From Gammaproteobacteria bacterium (GTDB taxonomy: Bacteria; Pseudomonadota; Gammaproteobacteria; SZUA-152), in contig JAOUJW010000007.1 in the NCBI GenBank assembly GCA_029882975.1, positions 124,001-188,000 of the forward strand: DNA of 64,000 nucleotides, read 5' to 3'. Under the pieces are notes generated by a model, which did not search any database, had not been told where the DNA came from, and worked only from the letters and a program-made list of their open reading frames with translations. Made by a program: the position numbers and the translations under genes. This document shows, piece by piece, positions 877 to 64,000 of this stretch. Within the stretch, counting starts at the first letter, position 1; every line of letters starts with the position of its first letter.

Positions 877-2199
877 ATGTCGTTTTCCATAACAAGCAGA
901 GAGATCAACCCGCAAATTGGTGTTTTCGCTGTGCCGGGCGATACGCTCTCAGCACAGAGTATTCTCATCGCCACTTTGATTAACAGGCACCCGGTCGAGT
1001 TATGCAATATGCCGGTAACTGACGGGATATTGAAACTACTGGAGGCGCTGCAACATTCCGGCGCCACCGTACGCCGCCAAAGTGATGTTTTGAGTTTAGA
1101 CTATGACTCCATGAGTTCCTACAGCGAAACGACGTTAACAAACTTACTGGATGCACTGGACGAACCGTCCCTATTACTGCCTGCCGCCTTAGCACTCAAC
1201 GGTGAAATCACACTAAACCGGGAACAACTTGCGCGGTGCACAACCACCCCCATGAGTGCAATCTCGCAAGTACTGGAAAGTTTCGGTGTAGCCGTGTCCG
1301 TCACAAGTGACAGCGTTTGTGCAAAAACCCATTTTTTTAAACCATCCAACATAAACTTGCAAGACTACCTCCATAGACAATGGCAGGACACAGAAAAGCG
1401 ACAACAAAATGCCGCCTTAAACTTGTCTATGATTGCCATCATCACCGCCGCCGCCGTGACGCTGGGTGCCAGCACTGTGCAACTTCCTATCAGGCACCCT
1501 GTTGTGGACGAGTTACTGACGTTTTTAAAAGCCGGCGGTTACAGAGTAGCCCGCAAAGACCTGAGCGTAGCCATTACTCCGCCTCGAAAAGCCAAAAATA
1601 TGGTGAGTTTCAACTTACGTCCTAACCCAAGTAACATTTTCGCATACGTAACCGCCGCCACGTTTTTCAATATCCCCCTGGTATTACGTAATGTACCGTT
1701 ACAAACCGTAAAGCAACACCAGGCCGAAAAACTGTTATTAGAGCGCATGGGATTGAACATCGTCTACGAATGCAACTCCATGTATATTCCGGTAAGAGAG
1801 TCCGTCAAGCTATCCCCAATGGAGATCGACCTGGAAAAAACCGGCATACACCCAAACCATCTGGCTTTTTTTGCCTTAATGCTCAATCGCTCCCAAGGGC
1901 CCAGTTATATCCGTCCTTGGCCTGCGGAGCTGAATTGTATTATGGAGCTGGCGAAACTTGGCCTGCGACTGGAAATCGCCAATGACGTGTTGCGGATCAA
2001 CCCAACACCACCCTACATTAAAGACAAAACCATCCATTGCCGCGATGAAAACGCGGCAATGGCGACCATGCTGGCCGGATTGAGAATTTCTGAAGGTACA
2101 ACAATTATAGACACAACACCCGCTGCCACATCTGCCTGCAAATCATTGCATGCGCAGCTACACAATATTGGTTTTGAATCTGAGTTTTGCACTTTATAA
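877..2199 (+). CDS. EPSP synthase (AroA)-like protein, probably not a canonical enolpyruvyl transferase
   Basis: 440 residues, the usual length of the EPSP synthase/MurA fold, with repeated beta-alpha-beta units (for example GVFAVPGD near residue 15 and the late segment LAFFALMLNRSQGPSYIRP). The N-terminal signature of true EPSP synthases, PGDKSISHR, which supplies the phosphate- and PEP-binding Lys, Ser and Arg, reads PGDTLSAQS here. The LGNAGTA-type motif near residue 95 is also not recognisable. The protein therefore looks like a family member that has lost or changed the reaction. It stands alone, far from other shikimate genes, next to luxI and behind a lux box, so a specialised-metabolite or signalling role is more likely than housekeeping aromatic synthesis. 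The start has only a weak ribosome site. Fold assignment is fairly sure; function is not. Confidence 0.65.
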   Translation: MSFSITSREINPQIGVFAVPGDTLSAQSILIATLINRHPVELCNMPVTDGILKLLEALQHSGATVRRQSDVLSLDYDSMSSYSETTLTNLLDALDEPSLLLPAALALNGEITLNREQLARCTTTPMSAISQVLESFGVAVSVTSDSVCAKTHFFKPSNINLQDYLHRQWQDTEKRQQNAALNLSMIAIITAAAVTLGASTVQLPIRHPVVDELLTFLKAGGYRVARKDLSVAITPPRKAKNMVSFNLRPNPSNIFAYVTAATFFNIPLVLRNVPLQTVKQHQAEKLLLERMGLNIVYECNSMYIPVRESVKLSPMEIDLEKTGIHPNHLAFFALMLNRSQGPSYIRPWPAELNCIMELAKLGLRLEIANDVLRINPTPPYIKDKTIHCRDENAAMATMLAGLRISEGTTIIDTTPAATSACKSLHAQLHNIGFESEFCTL

Positions 2200-2242
2200 G
2201 CGGTGTGTACCCTGTAACAAAACATACATTGCTTGCTTCAGA

Positions 2243-2947
2243 TCAAACCACACTGTGGACAGATACAGACACCTCCGAATCTGTTCGCAGTTGTTTAAAC
2301 ATGTCCATGTAGGCATTCAACATGCGCGGGCTTTTTTGGCTGACTTGCACCATAAAAGTTTGCCAATCCAGACAAGCCGCTACCGCCCAGACCCCATCTG
2401 CCATACGCTGAGGAGCCGCAATCCGCTCACAGGGCAAACCCGAAAGACGCAGAGCGCGAAGCACCGACACTGACACCACCATATAAACATAGCGATAATT
2501 GTTCAGCATGCAACAACTGAACAGGCCCTGGTATAACACATCAGCTATACTCCAACCGTCGGTAAACCGAGAGGCGCGGTGAATTTTATCCACTGCCAAG
2601 CGGGTGACCTCACAACAGTTATTCTGTTTCAGTTTAGTCGCCGCTTCAGGCAACAACATACTGAATTCATTTTGCAGCATCCATGGCTGGTCCGGCCCGA
2701 TGATTCTTAAAGTTCCTAATAAGTAATCCTTTTCGTATGCAGCAACATATGCAGCAAACTGATCATAGGAATCCCTTTCCCGCTTAGTAGGAGGTACCCA
2801 GTTTAGCTCTTCAAAAAACACTCGGGCGCGTAATCGGAATATGTCATCCCAGTGTTCTCGCATCAATCCACATTTAACCGTGTACTCAGAACCCGTGTAT
2901 GTATAATCCCGAAGTAAGCCAAGTTGAGCATCAATTTGTAATTGCAT
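2243..2947 (-). CDS. luxI: Acyl-homoserine-lactone synthase (LuxI family)
   Basis: 234-residue autoinducer synthase. All the near-invariant LuxI residues can be placed: Arg and Phe in LRARVFFEELNW, the following Trp, two Asp in RERDSYDQF, Arg in GTLRIIG, Phe in the FSMLLP segment, and Glu/Arg in EVTRLAVD. The family makes N-acyl-homoserine lactones from S-adenosylmethionine and an acyl-ACP or acyl-CoA; the acyl chain cannot be predicted here. A clear ribosome site (GGGAG) sits 6 nt before the ATG, and a lux box lies about 72 bp upstream of the start, consistent with positive autoregulation by the LuxR protein encoded at 3776-4519. The gene is convergent with the EPSP-synthase-like gene, with a 43-bp gap. 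Confidence 0.93.
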   Translation of the reverse strand: MQLQIDAQLGLLRDYTYTGSEYTVKCGLMREHWDDIFRLRARVFFEELNWVPPTKRERDSYDQFAAYVAAYEKDYLLGTLRIIGPDQPWMLQNEFSMLLPEAATKLKQNNCCEVTRLAVDKIHRASRFTDGWSIADVLYQGLFSCCMLNNYRYVYMVVSVSVLRALRLSGLPCERIAAPQRMADGVWAVAACLDWQTFMVQVSQKSPRMLNAYMDMFKQLRTDSEVSVSVHSVV

Positions 2948-3018
2948 AAAAATCTCCCAATCTTTTCATCATTGTTAAACCTACATGGATAGTTATGACG
3001 CATCGGCATCCGTTGCTG

Positions 3019-3038
3019 TCCTGTAGGTTTGAACAGGT
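3019..3038 (-). promoter_or_regulatory. lux box upstream of luxI
   Basis: The 20-mer TCCTGTAGGTTTGAACAGGT matches the classic lux box at 16 of 20 positions with the exact CTG-N10-CAG spacing. It lies between the unknown ORF at 3143-3568 and luxI, on the promoter side of luxI. This predicts binding of the neighbouring LuxR protein and autoinduction. Confidence 0.8.
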
Positions 3039-3142
3039 CAGTTTGGCTTGAGATATGCGTATTGGAGTAACAGCGGGAAAATGAGCCGGATTTACTATAG
3101 GGCGCGTAATAGTTGGAACATAAAGAAAAAACGGAAAGGACT

Positions 3143-54304: not shown

Positions 54305-54868
54305 CTACAACCAACGACAATGCTGCGAAAATCCCGACTTTAAGAAGTCCATCTGGTCTACCAATATACGCCCGCTGTTTTGGAGCGCTAAATATTCAGT
54401 AAAATTCGGTGTGTAAGGCAATGCTAACAATTCCAACCCACACTCCTTCAACAAGCGGCTTCCTTTGAAATGATTGCAGCGTTTACACGCAGTCACGACA
54501 TTAGTCCAACTGTCGGCCCCGCCACGGGAGCTGGGTACGATATGGTCGCGAGTCAACTCGCTGACCTTAAACCCACATCCGCAATACATGCATTGATGGT
54601 TATCACGACGAAATAACTCGCGATTACTCAAAGGTGGTACAGCACTAAACCGGGAACCCTTAGATCTTCCTTTAACCGCCACAATGGAATGAATATCCAA
54701 AAAAGATCGCTCTCCGCTGGCACGGTTGACGCCGCCATACACGCGAAACACATTCTCACCTGCACTCCAGGATACGCGATTTTTACTGTAAACCACGACA
54801 GCTTGCTCCCAAGGCATCCACCCTTGAGGTCTACCACTTACATCCAATCGCAAAATCAACGGAATCAC
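54305..54868 (-). CDS. HNH endonuclease beside the tRNA array
   Basis: 187 residues. The HNH/beta-beta-alpha-metal core is C-terminal: CMYCGCGF (zinc Cys pair), TRDHIVPSSRGG (catalytic His), SWTNVVTACKRCNHFKG (Asn and second Cys pair), about residues 93-140. The N-terminus MIPLILRLDVSGRPQGW is typical of a widespread family of small HNH proteins. It begins 48 bp downstream of the tRNA-Cys gene on the same strand, so it may be transcribed with the array. A role in array mobility or DNA processing is possible but unproven. Confidence 0.88.
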   Translation of the reverse strand: MIPLILRLDVSGRPQGWMPWEQAVVVYSKNRVSWSAGENVFRVYGGVNRASGERSFLDIHSIVAVKGRSKGSRFSAVPPLSNRELFRRDNHQCMYCGCGFKVSELTRDHIVPSSRGGADSWTNVVTACKRCNHFKGSRLLKECGLELLALPYTPNFTEYLALQNSGRILVDQMDFLKSGFSQHCRWL

Positions 54869-54916: not shown

Positions 54917-54991
54917 TGGACATGCCGGCGGGAGTCGAACCCGCATAGGACGGAGTTGCAGTCCGCCGCCTTGCCTTTCAGCCACGACATG
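54917..54991 (-). tRNA. tRNA-Cys (GCA)
   Basis: Cloverleaf: acceptor CATGTCG/CGGCATG, short D arm, anticodon stem GCGGA/TCCGT with loop CTGCAAC, T arm GCGGG-TTCGACT-CCCGC, discriminator U and encoded CCA. The C1-G72 pair is unusual for tRNA-Cys, which normally starts with G. Last tRNA of the array. Confidence 0.85.
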
Positions 54992-55145: not shown

Positions 55146-55231
55146 CGGAAGGCGGAGGACATGCTCCCCAAACTCCATGAGTTCCATTGGTGTTCAAAAC
55201 CACGCCGGCACGCTGGTCCGGTTCACCTTCC
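55146..55231 (-). tRNA. tRNA-Ser (UGA), 8/4 allo-tRNA form
   Basis: Acceptor stem of 8 bp, GGAAGGTG/CGCCTTCC, G73; T stem of 4 bp, GGGG/CCTC, around the non-canonical loop AGCATGT; anticodon loop TTTGAAC; long variable arm AACTC-ATG-GAGTT. The 3' triplet reads CTA, so CCA would have to be added or repaired. The variable arm and G73 are serine identity elements. Confidence 0.75.
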
Positions 55232-55265
55232 AATGCTGTTTGTTGACAGGGTTATGTTTATAAAC

Positions 55266-55351
55266 TGGCGGTGAGCAGAGGTCTCGATCCCCAAACCCGA
55301 AGATTCCAACTGTTTAGCAAACAGCGCCGTTCCCCGAACGGTTTACTCACC
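55266..55351 (-). tRNA. tRNA-Ser (GCU), 8/4 allo-tRNA form
   Basis: 8-bp acceptor GGTGAGTA/TGCTCACC, G73 and encoded CCA; T stem GGGG/CCTC with loop ATCGAGA; anticodon stem GCTGT/ACAGT with loop TTGCTAA; extended D stem CCGTTC/GAACGG; long variable arm. Confidence 0.82.
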
Positions 55352-55361
55352 CTTTTCCATA

Positions 55362-55449
55362 TGGCGGAAGGCAGTGGACATGCTCCACATGCTGCACCCA
55401 GCACCAGCTTGCTTCCAACAAGCGCCATCCCTTGGATGGTTTACCTTCC
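55362..55449 (-). tRNA. tRNA-Ser (GGA), 8/4 allo-tRNA form
   Basis: 8-bp acceptor GGAAGGTA/TGCCTTCC, G73 and encoded CCA; T stem GTGG/CCAC with loop AGCATGT, lacking the TTC motif; anticodon stem GCTTG/CAAGC with loop TTGGAAG; D stem CCATCC/GGATGG; long variable arm. Confidence 0.82.
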
Positions 55450-55458
55450 TACGTTACT

Positions 55459-55548
55459 TGGCAGAGAGTGGAAGACTTGCACTCCAAACTCATAAGAGTT
55501 CCTATGGTATTCGAAGCCACGCCGGTCCGCTTGCCCGGTTCACTCTCT
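55459..55548 (-). tRNA. tRNA-Ser (CGA), 8/4 allo-tRNA form
   Basis: 8-bp acceptor AGAGAGTG/CACTCTCT, all Watson-Crick, G73 and encoded CCA; T stem GGAG/CTTC with loop TGCAAGT; anticodon loop TTCGAAT with a C-A mismatch closing the stem; long variable arm AACTC-TTAT-GAGTT. It starts with A, unlike most tRNA-Ser. Confidence 0.78.
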
Positions 55549-55569: not shown

Positions 55570-55645
55570 TGGGGCGACTCACGAGACTCGAACTCGCATC
55601 TTCTTGGGTCACATCCAAGGGCTTTATCATTAAGCTAGAGCCGCC
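55570..55645 (-). tRNA. tRNA-His (GUG)
   Basis: Has the His-specific G-1:C73 pair, acceptor GCGGCTC/GAGTCGC, anticodon stem CTTGG/CCAAG with loop ATGTGAC, T arm GCGAG-TTCGAGT-CTCGT and encoded CCA. Confidence 0.92.
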
Positions 55646-55647
55646 AT

Positions 55648-55721
55648 TGGCTCCCCCTCCACGATTCGAACGTGGACTTTCTGAGTCAAAGTCAGATGCC
55701 CTGCCATTAGGCCAAGGGGGA
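55648..55721 (-). tRNA. tRNA-Gln (UUG)
   Basis: Acceptor TCCCCCT/AGGGGGA, G73, encoded CCA; anticodon stem TCTGA/TCAGA with loop CTTTGAC; T loop TTCGAAT. It begins 2 bp from tRNA-His. Confidence 0.93.
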
Positions 55722-55725
55722 AAAG

Positions 55726-55798
55726 CGGGACTGAAGAGACTTGAACTCTCACCATCCTGATCGACAATCAGGTGCTCTACCAATTGAGCTACAATCCC
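55726..55798 (-). tRNA. tRNA-Asp (GUC)
   Basis: Acceptor GGGATTG/CAGTCCC, G73; anticodon stem CCTGA/TCAGG with loop TTGTCGA; T arm GAGAG-TTCAAGT-CTCTT. No CCA is encoded (the sequence continues CTT). Confidence 0.9.
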
Positions 55799-56072
55799 AT
55801 CTTTGGTGGTGGGGCCACCCAGTTAAATTATAAGTATGTTTCATAATACGAGCCGGTTTCCCACACTCCGACTCCCAATTTCCTGACATTGGTTTCACTT
55901 TACTTACTTCTGTGTGATCAGGCAGAGACGAATAATCACGCAACCAGCTTGAAACCCAACCAGACGCTGCCACATCTTCGTATTACAAAAAACACTTTCA
56001 GCCGATAGCGGCGGGGACTCGGACTCGCACCTTACTGCAACACTCTTTACCCACTTAACACTATCGACTACC
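55799..56072 (-). other. Decayed tRNA-like sequence at the 5' side of the array
   Basis: No intact tRNA, but fragments remain. At 56003-56066, CGATAGTG/CGCTATCG form an 8-bp acceptor-like stem with a T-loop-like TCCGAGT that no longer has a proper stem. Around 55835-55860 there is an anticodon-arm-like GTAT-TATGAAAC-ATAC. I read this as former array members now degenerate; other structured RNA cannot be excluded. Confidence 0.35.
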
Positions 56073-56107
56073 AAAAATTGAGTGAGGCGACAACACCGCC
56101 TCACTCA
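56073..56107 (-). terminator. Hairpin with T run inside the array leader
   Basis: Perfect 11-bp stem TGAGTGAGGCG / CGCCTCACTCA with a 7-nt loop, followed on the minus strand by ATTTTT. It looks like a rho-independent terminator lying before the intact tRNA genes. Confidence 0.7.
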
Positions 56108-57447: not shown

Positions 57448-58250
57448 GTGGTAGTTTGTTCTGGTCAAGCAAAACCGGACACTTCCCTAAATTTAATTTC
57501 ATAACCAATTGGAGACAGATCTCCGTTTGAAGTATGTAACCTGTCCAGGTTGTAATACTTCATATATGCTGCTACATCTTTTCGCATATGTGCTCTTGTT
57601 GGTTGATGCACCTTCAGGATCCAGTCGTGCTTCAGGCTTCCGAAGAAGCGTTCTACCACGGCATTGTCCCAGCAAGCCCCTACGTCACCCATGCTCGCAC
57701 GAATCCCGTAGCTGGATAGTAGCTTTCGATATCGCTTGCTGGTGTACTGCGAGCCTCGATCGCTGTGAAATACCAGACCTTCCGGCGGTTGGCGTAGGTT
57801 ATATGCCTTCATCATCGCCTTGATTACCAGGTCCGTTGTCATACGCTTGTCGATATGCCACCCAACGATTCGTCTGGAAAACAAGTCCATAACTATCGCC
57901 AAATACATCCAACCTTCGCCCGTCCTCAAGTAGGTCACATCACCAGCCCATACCTCATTGGGTCCGGTTGGATTGAAGTTCTGGTTCAACAAGTTCTCTG
58001 CCACGGCATCGGTATGCTTACGCTGGGTGGTTGTTTTGTAGGCCACCCTTTGCTGCACTACCAATCCCAGTTTAGCCATCAATTTACGGACTCGATACCG
58101 TCCAATTTCAAAGCCTTCTTCGCGTAACTTTTTCATCAGCCCCCGGCTACCCCCCAGATTGGCCGATCCGTCGCTGCCTGTTGTTGTCAATGAACCGGTG
58201 GATATTCCCAGATTTTCACCCGTAATCACTGCGACCATGATTGCGTTTCC
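57448..58250 (-). mobile_element. Remnant of an IS3-family insertion sequence
   Basis: One IS end is likely near 57448-57485, where TGTTCTGGTCAAGCAAAACC precedes the 3' end of the transposase gene, in the style of IS3-family termini. The other end and the first reading frame (orfA) are missing; matching sequence stops near 58180-58250. The element should be immobile. Confidence 0.65.
57465..58238 (-). pseudogene. IS3-family transposase OrfB, 5'-truncated
   Basis: 257 residues remain open. The rve integrase core is complete: Asp in WAGDVTYLR, Asp in FHSDRGSQYTS and Glu in AVVERFFGSLK give the DDE triad. Before it, SRGLMKKLREEGFEIGRYRV is the helix-turn-helix_21 region, but the preceding roughly 35 residues (TGENLGISTGSLTTTGSDGS) do not resemble any IS3 protein. 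OrfA, normally joined by a -1 frameshift, is absent. The gene is therefore a truncated remnant fused to unrelated sequence. Confidence 0.85.
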
Positions 58251-60922: not shown

Positions 60923-63900
60923 CTATTTACCAGTTAGTATATCGAAACCATCCAAAATTCCACTACAGTGATTACAAGCAGTAAATGGGGCTCCTTGCCC
61001 TGGGCTGTCCTGAAGCTTATAGGTCGAAACTTGAACCCTACCAACATCAAACCCAGGAGTGGCTCTAACTTGATTCAACACATCGTTAGCTGACTGCACT
61101 TCTGCATGTAGGCCGGGCAACCCCTTCGCTCCTTTATCGTCCTTGAATGCATAGATGACCCCCCCATCCACATGTTCCCGAATTCTATCTCTCATAATTG
61201 GGTTCAGCTCATTTCCTTCTTTAGCGTAGAGCCTTGCAATCTCATCCACGTATTTGTCTGGGTCTGTCACCCTCATAAATTGTTTCTCATCTCCAAACCG
61301 TTCTGTACCAGGAAAAGTTTTACCTTTTCTTAGTGAAAACGGAATGTTTTCGAAGGTTTTACTTTTAATGTTTAGTTCAGGTATCCCGCTTTTAGATATA
61401 GCCACTCCATCTAAATCATTTATTGCAATTTTTGCTTTAGCTTCTGCGTCCACCTCAGAATTTAGTCGTCTACCAAAACGTTCCCGCATAATGAGATTTA
61501 ACTTATGCTTGAAACGACTCATCATCCCCGGAAGGTTTTGCCTGAGATACATCCCCCCCATTATCGCCAGGGTTCCTACCGCTATCGTTCCGAGCATTAT
61601 TTTAGCAGAACTTTCTTTATCCCGCCCGGTTTGCTTGCTGACTAGTTCCGTCCCTTTGTCAAAGGCCCAAGCTTGGAGTTCTTCGATGGATTTTCCGATT
61701 GAAGAGTTTTCTATCGCTGTTCTTATCGCAAAGCGAACCGGACCCATAGCAACATCAACAGCCATTAAAGCGTACTTTATGAAGGGGCTATCTAGCATTT
61801 CACTAAGTTCAATCACCCCTTCACCCAACATCTCTAATGCATCGGCCGCATCCGAGGCCACGTCCTGAAGTGGGCTTGGTGCATCCGATATCAGCCCACC
61901 CGGTGCGCCAGGTATCATAGTTTTTGGCTCTAACACGCTATTGTTGGCCAACATTGAATTTCTACTAGCCCTGATACCGAAATTCGTTTGCGCAGAGGCC
62001 ACCTTACCCAGTACATCGTCTTTGTTTAGCAAACTTAGGGCACGTTCAACTTCCTCATCTTTGGCTCCATGGGCTTTCAAGGTATCCCTAATTAGATCTT
62101 CTCGATCGTTGATTGAACCACCGACTCGATCTAAGTTAGCCCCCCTGTGTACCAAACTACTCGCAGTATCCCTGTCCACACCCGCCAATAGATGTTTCAG
62201 ATATTGCTGGCGATAATCTCCTTTGAGCTCGATTATATCGTCGGGTACGCTATTCCACATGGCGCTGGCACCCAAAGCATTACCCATGGCCGTACCAAAA
62301 GCATCCGCTGCAATCGCGGACATATCCATTTCGCCCTCTTTGTAGACTTTCATGCTGATTTGTTGTCGTATAACTCCTTTGAATACCCCCTTCAAAAAAT
62401 CACCCGCAAATCCTTCCCAGGAGGCCCCGTTAACAGATCCTGCATTGGTAGCACCGCCATCCATACCATAGCTAATACCGGCCATAACAACAGATATCGC
62501 CACTCCCTTCCAGTCGAATTTTTCCTGCAAGCCCATAGCCACACGTAGGCCTTGTGTTACGACGCTACTTAAAGCTGCCTGTGCCATGGTACTCGATAGC
62601 GAACTCTCGGCACCGGATGCCATACCCGCGGTAATCCCTGCTGCGATGGTAGACACAGCCAAACTCTTCCAGTCTATTTTGTCTTGAAAACCGTAACGGA
62701 CATACAACATCTGCCCGACCAATCCGCCCACAAAAGCACCCAGCATGGCGGCCCCTACTTTACTGCCAACAGCCGGAGTCGCGTAAATACTCACTACTAT
62801 CGTTATTATTATGACGATAATAATGATGGCGTTCCGCTTACACTTATCGATTCCTGGTTGTACAGGTTCGGGTAATGTCGGCGAGGTATCACCAATCACC
62901 TCACCAAAGTTAAAGGGGCGATAGGTGTCAGCGGTGTTATGTAGATTGCTTATATTGTTAGGAATTTTTAGGGTTTGCCCCACCACCAGATTGGCATTAC
63001 TTTGTATACCATTGGCATCGGCAATCAAGTACCACAAACGACTATCGCCGTATACAGCTAATGCGATGGACTGCAAGGAATCCCCTGCATTTACCACGTA
63101 CTGTCCGGGTGTAGATCGGGGATAAGTTTCAGAAACCGGGGTGTAGTTATAGTCAAAATCCACGTCCAGTTTTCCATCTGAATCCACCCCGATGGATCCT
63201 ACCGGGGAACTGTTAGCGTAGTAGTAGTATTCCCAGTTTCCGTTTTCGCTTTTCGATAGAATTTGTCCTTGGGTGTTAACTACATAGTTACGTTCGGCAG
63301 ACTTGTTAAATTCGTCCAAGATACGAATTAAGTTCCCATTAACATCATAGGTGGAAGTCGTACTGCCATTTCGTAGTATGGTGCTTGTACCATTGACCGC
63401 TTCTTCTTTATAGGAGTCGAATTTGGCATAGGTCGTCTCGTAGGTGTTGGTATACCTCGTTCCCACATGAACCGCAAACGTATATTTGTAGTTATTTCCG
63501 TAAACATCGTAAGCTCCGGGATAGTCATAGCTCACTGTCGTTTGCAAAGCCAAACCAGACCCTGCCACTTTGCCCTCGTAGGTAGAGCCGGTGCCTTTAT
63601 AAGTTTTTTGCAATTGAATACGGCCGTCTTCGTCGTAGACGGTCTCTCTCATCTCCTCGGATTGATTGGCGGTACTGACCTTGCTGTACAGACGTTGTCG
63701 TCCAGCTAAGTCGTATTCGCGTATCCAATTGGGTTGACCGCCACGGAAGGTTCGCTTTATCAGATTATTAGCGGTGTATACATAGGAGTCGGTGACCTGG
63801 GTCATGGTACCACTAATATCTTCAAAGGTAGTAGCGATGCTACGGTTACCTTCAGCATCATAGGACAGTTCCACACCCTGGTTTTCTGAGATAACGATCT

Positions 63901-64000
63901 GCCCGGTAACCGGATCTTTCACCCCTTGACTGACGGTAATACGATTCATGGCATCGTATGAATAGTAAAAATCCGTTTTCCCCTCGCTTGGGCTCACCAC
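60923..64000 (-). CDS. RHS-repeat polymorphic toxin with LysM and YwqJ-type deaminase end (partial)
   Basis: C-terminal 1025 residues of a protein that continues beyond the right edge. The first 300 residues are RHS/YD repeats (YDAMNRIT, YDAEGNRS, YDVNGNLI). A LysM-like module follows (YVVNAGDSLQSIALAVYGD, about 305-350), then a hydrophobic segment and glycine-zipper-like repeats (about 390-560), and a long helical linker. The last 60 residues have LHAEVQS and FTACNHCSG, the His-Ala-Glu and Cys-x-x-Cys zinc motifs of YwqJ-type nucleic-acid deaminases. Such proteins deliver toxins to rival cells. The RHS core end lacks the usual DPxGL cleavage motif in the visible part. Confidence 0.87.
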   Translation of the reverse strand: MVSPSEGKTDFYYSYDAMNRITVSQGVKDPVTGQIVISENQGVELSYDAEGNRSIATTFEDISGTMTQVTDSYVYTANNLIKRTFRGGQPNWIREYDLAGRQRLYSKVSTANQSEEMRETVYDEDGRIQLQKTYKGTGSTYEGKVAGSGLALQTTVSYDYPGAYDVYGNNYKYTFAVHVGTRYTNTYETTYAKFDSYKEEAVNGTSTILRNGSTTSTYDVNGNLIRILDEFNKSAERNYVVNTQGQILSKSENGNWEYYYYANSSPVGSIGVDSDGKLDVDFDYNYTPVSETYPRSTPGQYVVNAGDSLQSIALAVYGDSRLWYLIADANGIQSNANLVVGQTLKIPNNISNLHNTADTYRPFNFGEVIGDTSPTLPEPVQPGIDKCKRNAIIIIVIIITIVVSIYATPAVGSKVGAAMLGAFVGGLVGQMLYVRYGFQDKIDWKSLAVSTIAAGITAGMASGAESSLSSTMAQAALSSVVTQGLRVAMGLQEKFDWKGVAISVVMAGISYGMDGGATNAGSVNGASWEGFAGDFLKGVFKGVIRQQISMKVYKEGEMDMSAIAADAFGTAMGNALGASAMWNSVPDDIIELKGDYRQQYLKHLLAGVDRDTASSLVHRGANLDRVGGSINDREDLIRDTLKAHGAKDEEVERALSLLNKDDVLGKVASAQTNFGIRASRNSMLANNSVLEPKTMIPGAPGGLISDAPSPLQDVASDAADALEMLGEGVIELSEMLDSPFIKYALMAVDVAMGPVRFAIRTAIENSSIGKSIEELQAWAFDKGTELVSKQTGRDKESSAKIMLGTIAVGTLAIMGGMYLRQNLPGMMSRFKHKLNLIMRERFGRRLNSEVDAEAKAKIAINDLDGVAISKSGIPELNIKSKTFENIPFSLRKGKTFPGTERFGDEKQFMRVTDPDKYVDEIARLYAKEGNELNPIMRDRIREHVDGGVIYAFKDDKGAKGLPGLHAEVQSANDVLNQVRATPGFDVGRVQVSTYKLQDSPGQGAPFTACNHCSGILDGFDILTGK

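What the first reader, a model, noticed from the sequence alone, without database searches (positions are those of the whole stretch)
55146..55548. Four consecutive serine tRNAs (CGA, GGA, GCU, UGA), all with 8/4 allo-tRNA structure
Hand folding shows that each of the four Ser genes has an 8-bp acceptor stem and a 4-bp T stem instead of 7/5, long variable arms, G73, extended D stems in two and non-canonical T loops (AGCATGT twice, ATCGAGA, TGCAAGT). Compensatory pairs at acceptor position 8 (G-C, A-T, A-T, G-C) differ between genes, which argues for selection on the structure. Allo-tRNAs with 8/4 folds are known in bacteria, but a set of four with all four serine anticodons (UGA, GCU, GGA and CGA) in one array is striking. 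It could be a spare serine-decoding set resistant to tRNA-cleaving toxins or phage effects.
Basis: partly seen in the sequence, partly recalled or inferred. Interest (0 to 1): 0.88.

Follow-up and report, generated by a model that had tools for sequence, protein, structure and literature searches.

The report
Phage-type spare serine tRNA set
A bacterial chromosome carries a small, foreign-looking tRNA gene cluster with four oddly built serine tRNAs that together read every serine codon, the same kind of set that large phages and cyanobacterial plasmids carry, often unannotated, most likely as spare translation parts for when the host's own tRNAs are attacked.

Summary
Four consecutive minus-strand genes (Ser-CGA, -GGA, -GCU, -UGA) fold as 8/4 class II tRNAs. 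The 8/4 fold beats 7/5 in all four by 1.2-3.3 kcal/mol. Across 52 distinct relatives, pair 8-65 forms in 51, using A-U, G-C, C-G and U-A; the rival 7/5 pair 49-65 forms in 7. ARAGORN at default settings finds one of the four; Rfam finds none.

They are not the housekeeping set. The genome has ordinary 7/5 tRNA-Ser UGA, GCU and GGA elsewhere; no ordinary CGA was found. The four sit in a nine-gene array (Asp, Gln, His, Ser x4, Arg, Cys) followed by an HNH gene. The array's other tRNAs are only 57-68% identical to the genome's own.

The set is not unique. Phage DSS3_MAL1 and Xanthomonas phage X1 each carry all four 8/4 serine anticodons, none annotated there. Other phages carry one to four; cyanobacterial plasmid arrays carry an 8/4 Ser-GCU beside an HNH gene. 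So this looks like a chromosomal copy of a mobile, phage/plasmid-type tRNA array. Charging by SerRS is expected from identity elements. Protection against tRNA-cleaving toxins is plausible but untested.

The parts
55725..55798 (-). tRNA-Asp(GUC), 7/5, first gene of the array
   Evidence: ARAGORN; Rfam 70.9 bits; 64% identical to the genome's own Asp tRNA
55648..55721 (-). tRNA-Gln(UUG), 7/5 (7/5 and 8/4 score equally because U8 could wobble with G65)
   Evidence: 57% identical to own Gln
55570..55644 (-). tRNA-His(GUG), 7/5
   Evidence: 62% identical to own His
55459..55548 (-). tRNA-Ser(CGA), 8/4, encoded CCA
   Evidence: 8/4; model R1 90.7 bits; missed by default ARAGORN and Rfam
55362..55449 (-). 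tRNA-Ser(GGA), 8/4, encoded CCA
   Evidence: 8/4; R1 90.8 bits
55266..55351 (-). tRNA-Ser(GCU), 8/4, encoded CCA; closest to cyanobacterial array Ser-GCU (79% identity)
55146..55231 (-). tRNA-Ser(UGA), 8/4, no encoded CCA (GCTA)
   Evidence: R1 91.1 bits
55001..55077 (-). tRNA-Arg(ACG), 7/5
   Evidence: 68% identical to own Arg
54917..54991 (-). tRNA-Cys(GCA), 7/5, last tRNA of the array
   Evidence: 62% identical to own Cys
54305..54868 (-). HNH endonuclease (187 aa) directly 3' of the array
   Evidence: Pfam HNH_5 3.7e-16; relatives beside tRNA arrays on plasmids and in phage SCTP-2
55827..55832 (-). possible -10 element (TATAAT) about 30 nt upstream of tRNA-Asp
   Evidence: by eye; no good -35 seen and not reported by the promoter scan, weak evidence
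56079..56107 (-). terminator-like hairpin upstream of the array on the same strand
   Evidence: 13-pair stem followed by ATTTTT; shuffled sequence gives as many terminator-like sites, so weak

Best explanation
A mobile, phage/plasmid-type tRNA array now sits in a bacterial chromosome. Shown: it holds nine tRNAs and an HNH gene, it is redundant with and diverged from the host's own tRNAs, and its serine members belong to an 8/4 lineage found in phages and cyanobacterial plasmids. Inferred: the four serine tRNAs are charged with serine by the host SerRS through the long variable arm, G73 and G2-C71, and decode all six serine codons on the ribosome. Inferred, less sure: the array helps when the resident tRNA pool is damaged, for example by anticodon nucleases or translation inhibitors, because its tRNAs differ in shape and sequence from the host copies. 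The HNH gene is probably a homing or spread factor of the array.
For: 8/4 fold confirmed and covarying. G2-C71 in 52 of 52 and G73 in 51 of 52 relatives. Ordinary 7/5 Ser genes present elsewhere; only these four 8/4 genes in the genome. Array tRNAs 57-68% identical to own cognates. Full four-anticodon 8/4 sets in phages DSS3_MAL1 and X1, one to four matches each in CcrBL10, RcXuper, RpAliso, DLP_6, JG004, AbTZA1 and ten IMG/VR contigs. 8/4 Ser-GCU beside HNH in cyanobacterial plasmid arrays. HNH relatives beside arrays on Variovorax, Methylibium and Polaromonas plasmids and in phage SCTP-2. In the Anabaena trn operon, an array of this kind is induced by translation inhibitors and its deletion lowers resistance to them (PMC10272220). 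In Mycobacterium avium arrays, an HNH gene is embedded in all four types and the tRNAs are redundant with the chromosome (PMC12803027).
Against: No expression, charging or phenotype data. Only nine tRNAs here, against 10-27 in the plasmid arrays. No phage structural genes were recognised next to it, and no integration boundary was mapped, so gain by transfer is inferred. Same-family relatives carry related HNH genes without neighbouring arrays, so the HNH gene is not array-specific. Betaproteobacterial arrays with the same HNH have 7/5 Ser tRNAs, so 8/4 is not a requirement of such arrays. Gene decay is possible: UGA lacks CCA, and two anticodon stems carry a mismatch.
Confidence: 0.75

Rival explanations
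1. The 8/4 shape itself was selected because it escapes toxins or defence nucleases that attack ordinary tRNA-Ser, so the set is a dedicated anti-defence module.
For: In the phage and plasmid arrays examined, 8/4 is almost confined to serine, while the other tRNAs are 7/5 or tied. All four serine anticodons occur in 8/4 form. In mycobacteriophages, Ser tRNAs cleaved within the anticodon by nucleases were reported as avoided (PMC10264068). Phage tRNAs evade retrons and related defences (abstract of PMC11555353).
Against: No assay. Some phages and plasmids keep 7/5 Ser in the same array. Shared ancestry of one successful tRNA lineage would also explain the restriction to serine. The nucleases in PMC10264068 cut in the anticodon loop, which the 8/4 change does not alter.
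Confidence: 0.3
2. Codon-supply role: the array simply tops up tRNAs for codons that are common in a mobile element or under high demand.
For: Full serine anticodon coverage; no ordinary Ser-CGA was found in the genome, so the array may add one anticodon.
Against: Asp, His, Cys, Arg and Gln anticodons are redundant with resident genes. A Ser-UGA tRNA normally also reads UCG (established knowledge). Codon usage was not analysed here.
Confidence: 0.15
3. Decaying remnant: a non-functional leftover of a lost phage or plasmid.
For: Small size; a degenerate tRNA-like stretch at about 56005-56073 by eye; UGA without CCA; anticodon-stem mismatches in two genes.
Against: All acceptor and T-stem pairs are intact in all four Ser genes, serine identity elements are kept, and five other complete tRNAs are present.
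Confidence: 0.2
4. They are ordinary 7/5 class II tRNAs mis-folded by hand.
For: None found.
Confidence: 0.01

Closest known systems
8/4 serine tRNAs and allo-tRNAs (Mukai et al. 2017; review PMC7609411)
   Same: 12-bp acceptor branch split 8/4, long variable arm, SerRS identity elements. From memory, the 2017 abstract states that certain bacteria and their phages use the 8/4 structure for serine and histidine tRNAs; that paper could not be opened here.
   Different: The allo-tRNAs in the review mostly carry non-serine anticodons; these four carry serine anticodons and form a complete set in one array.
tRNA arrays of large phages (DSS3_MAL1, Xanthomonas X1, CcrBL10, RcXuper, RpAliso, DLP_6)
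   Same: Sets of three or four 8/4-type Ser genes with different serine anticodons inside a tRNA array.
   Different: Those are phage genomes with longer arrays; here the set is in a 190-kb contig with ordinary bacterial neighbours.
Anabaena-type plasmid trn operon of cyanobacteria (PMC10272220)
   Same: Redundant array, HNH gene alongside in related plasmids, one 8/4 Ser-GCU homologous to the window's.
   Different: Plasmid-borne, 20-26 tRNAs, RHH repressor TrcR in Anabaena; in the plasmids read here only Ser-GCU is clearly 8/4.
tRNA array units of mycobacteria and plasmid arrays of Variovorax, Methylibium, Polaromonas
   Same: Dense redundant array with HNH gene embedded or at its end.
   Different: The Ser tRNAs of the betaproteobacterial arrays are 7/5.

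Membership tests
8/4 serine tRNA | 8-bp acceptor stem with 4-bp T stem, 12 bp in all | tested here: met
8/4 serine tRNA | serine identity: long variable arm, G73, G2-C71 | tested here: met
8/4 serine tRNA | charged with serine and active in translation | not testable with these tools
   needs SerRS assay or tRNA sequencing
suppressor-type allo-tRNA | 8/4 or 9/3 serine tRNA body with a non-serine anticodon | tested here: not met
   anticodons are CGA, GGA, GCU, UGA
mobile tRNA array | dense array redundant with and diverged from resident tRNAs | tested here: met
mobile tRNA array | HNH gene within or beside the array | tested here: met
   literature
mobile tRNA array | carried on a phage or plasmid, or with mapped borders of an inserted element | tested here: inconclusive
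   190-kb contig with ordinary bacterial genes; no phage structural genes recognised beside it; boundaries not mapped
Anabaena-type trn operon | silent in normal growth, induced by translation stress | not testable with these tools
   no expression data

The most novel reading that the evidence does not exclude
The 8/4 tRNA-Ser lineage is a distinct, horizontally moving serine-decoding system of phages and plasmids whose shape is selected to survive host or phage-defence attack on serine tRNAs. It is widely overlooked because standard annotation misses it, so published counts of serine tRNAs in phages, including the reported avoidance of UCN-reading Ser tRNAs, may be biased.
Probability: 0.3. 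Interest if true: 0.72.

Novelty: new member of a known kind. Interest (0 to 1): 0.5.

Why it matters
It ties an odd tRNA shape to a concrete biology: complete serine sets in phage and plasmid tRNA arrays. It shows that default ARAGORN and Rfam miss most of the window's genes and that the deposited annotation of several named phages lacks theirs, which bears on the open question of what phage tRNAs are for. It also gives a ready natural set of 8/4 tRNA-Ser genes for charging, nuclease-sensitivity and orthogonality tests.

Tried and rejected
Sole housekeeping serine set: rejected, since 7/5 Ser-UGA, -GCU and -GGA are elsewhere; an ordinary Ser-CGA was sought by pattern and by DNA similarity and not found. 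A 7/5 refold: rejected. A single common origin of the four window genes: not shown. UGA and CGA pair together (97), GCU and GGA fall elsewhere, but holding the four together is not rejected (p-AU 0.32), and the tree has few columns. Synteny around the insertion: the rhodanese neighbour was found in relatives, but only on short contigs in the closest ones, so no empty site was established. A mycobacteriophage test (Bxz1) failed because the record is not held. Weaker model matches at about 35 bits in other genomes were ordinary 7/5 tRNAs.

Full report
Observation. On the minus strand they run CGA, GGA, GCU, UGA, inside an array Asp-Gln-His-Ser-Ser-Ser-Ser-Arg-Cys. Each has eight acceptor pairs and four T-stem pairs. 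The base that would have to pair in a 7/5 fold (position 49 with 65) is T opposite C or T in every gene. Constrained folding favours 8/4 by 1.2 to 3.3 kcal/mol. ARAGORN at default settings reports only Ser-GCU, and Rfam's tRNA model reports none of the four.

Structure as a conserved feature. An alignment of the four with a cyanobacterial homologue has 96.9% standard pairs against 37-48% for slid controls, and 18 of 26 pairs change on both sides. In 52 distinct relatives gathered later (the four window genes included), pair 8-65 is A-T 29, G-C 15, C-G 5, T-A 2 and broken once, while the 7/5 alternative pairs in only 7. G2-C71 is invariant and G73 is found in 51. Pair 7-66 is a T-G wobble in 43. 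The relatives were found through patterns and a model based on the window genes, so this set is biased towards that family. The patterns used fixed A or G at position 8, so rows found by pattern could not show C or T there. The C-G and T-A forms come from rows found by the model or by sequence similarity, so they are the most independent support.

Spare, not sole. The genome (5.18 Mb, 59 contigs, 99.4% complete) has ordinary tRNA-Ser UGA, GCU and GGA on contigs C43, C13 and C15. An ordinary Ser-CGA was not found. The model finds no other 8/4 Ser in the genome. The array's Asp, His, Gln, Arg and Cys genes are 57-68% identical to the resident ones. A second odd array on contig C57 (Ile, Thr, Asn, Glu, Pro, Leu, Trp, Lys, Met) overlaps in no anticodon with this one.

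Relatives. Among 369 genomes of the class, one other had a strong match (L067). A genome-wide pattern for 8/4 Ser-GCU returned mostly cyanobacteria. Viral contigs gave many: one carries four adjacent Ser genes of this type or near it (L139), and another carries GGA, UGA, CGA and GCU, the last imperfectly paired (L130). In named phages, DSS3_MAL1 and Xanthomonas X1 each carry CGA, UGA, GCU and GGA in 8/4 form, none annotated at those positions in the deposited records. CcrBL10, RcXuper and RpAliso carry three matches each; one in RpAliso (GCU) has an A opposite G at pair 8 and is not clean. Whole-record searches agree. In the arrays examined, other amino acids' tRNAs are 7/5 or tied, with two apparent exceptions.

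Surroundings. The gene directly 3' of the array is an HNH endonuclease. Its plasmid relatives sit at the ends of arrays of 10-27 tRNAs in Variovorax, Methylibium and Polaromonas, and a relative lies among the tRNAs of Salicola phage SCTP-2. Cyanobacterial plasmid arrays have an HNH gene at the other end and an 8/4 Ser-GCU. Several other HNH relatives, including those in the closest genomes, have no array nearby, so the link is frequent, not strict.

Mechanism. Shown: anatomy, redundancy, foreign character and the phage/plasmid relationship. Inferred from established tRNA biology: SerRS charges through the variable arm, G73 and the acceptor stem and does not read the anticodon, so all four should be charged with serine. 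Inferred by analogy: the Anabaena trn operon, an array of this kind, is silent in normal growth, induced by antibiotics that target translation, and favours survival under them (PMC10272220); phage tRNAs can evade tRNA-targeting defences (PMC10264068, PMC11555353). Whether the 8/4 shape itself gives protection is open. The homing role of the HNH gene is an inference from its family and its neighbours.

Novelty. 8/4 serine tRNAs, mobile tRNA arrays and HNH-associated arrays are each known. I file it as a new member of a known kind.

Noticed in passing
G000 contig C57 (L143) 2141-3116, minus strand: A second odd tRNA array: Ile-UAU with a long variable arm, Thr, Asn, an 86-nt Glu, Pro, a 77-nt Leu-UAG with short arm, Trp, Lys, Met; no anticodon shared with the window array.
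   Followed up: partly
window 60923-64000, minus strand: Rhs-type repeat protein gene running off the window, with an HAE...CxxC motif in the part read that resembles a deaminase-type toxin domain (by eye).
   Followed up: no
window 56005-56073, minus strand: Degenerate tRNA-like stretch with a 9-pair terminal stem (by eye), possibly a decayed tRNA upstream of the array.
   Followed up: no
window 57465-58238, minus strand: IS3-type transposase (rve domain) near the array; a possible clue to how the region changed.
   Followed up: no
L173, L174, L175 (phages DSS3_MAL1, CcrBL10, Xanthomonas X1): Clear 8/4 Ser tRNA genes lie in stretches with no annotated tRNA, so the deposited tRNA counts of these phages are too low.
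   Followed up: yes
L028 2668-3729 (Variovorax plasmid): An RNA ligase family gene lies inside the plasmid tRNA array, suggestive of tRNA repair.
   Followed up: no
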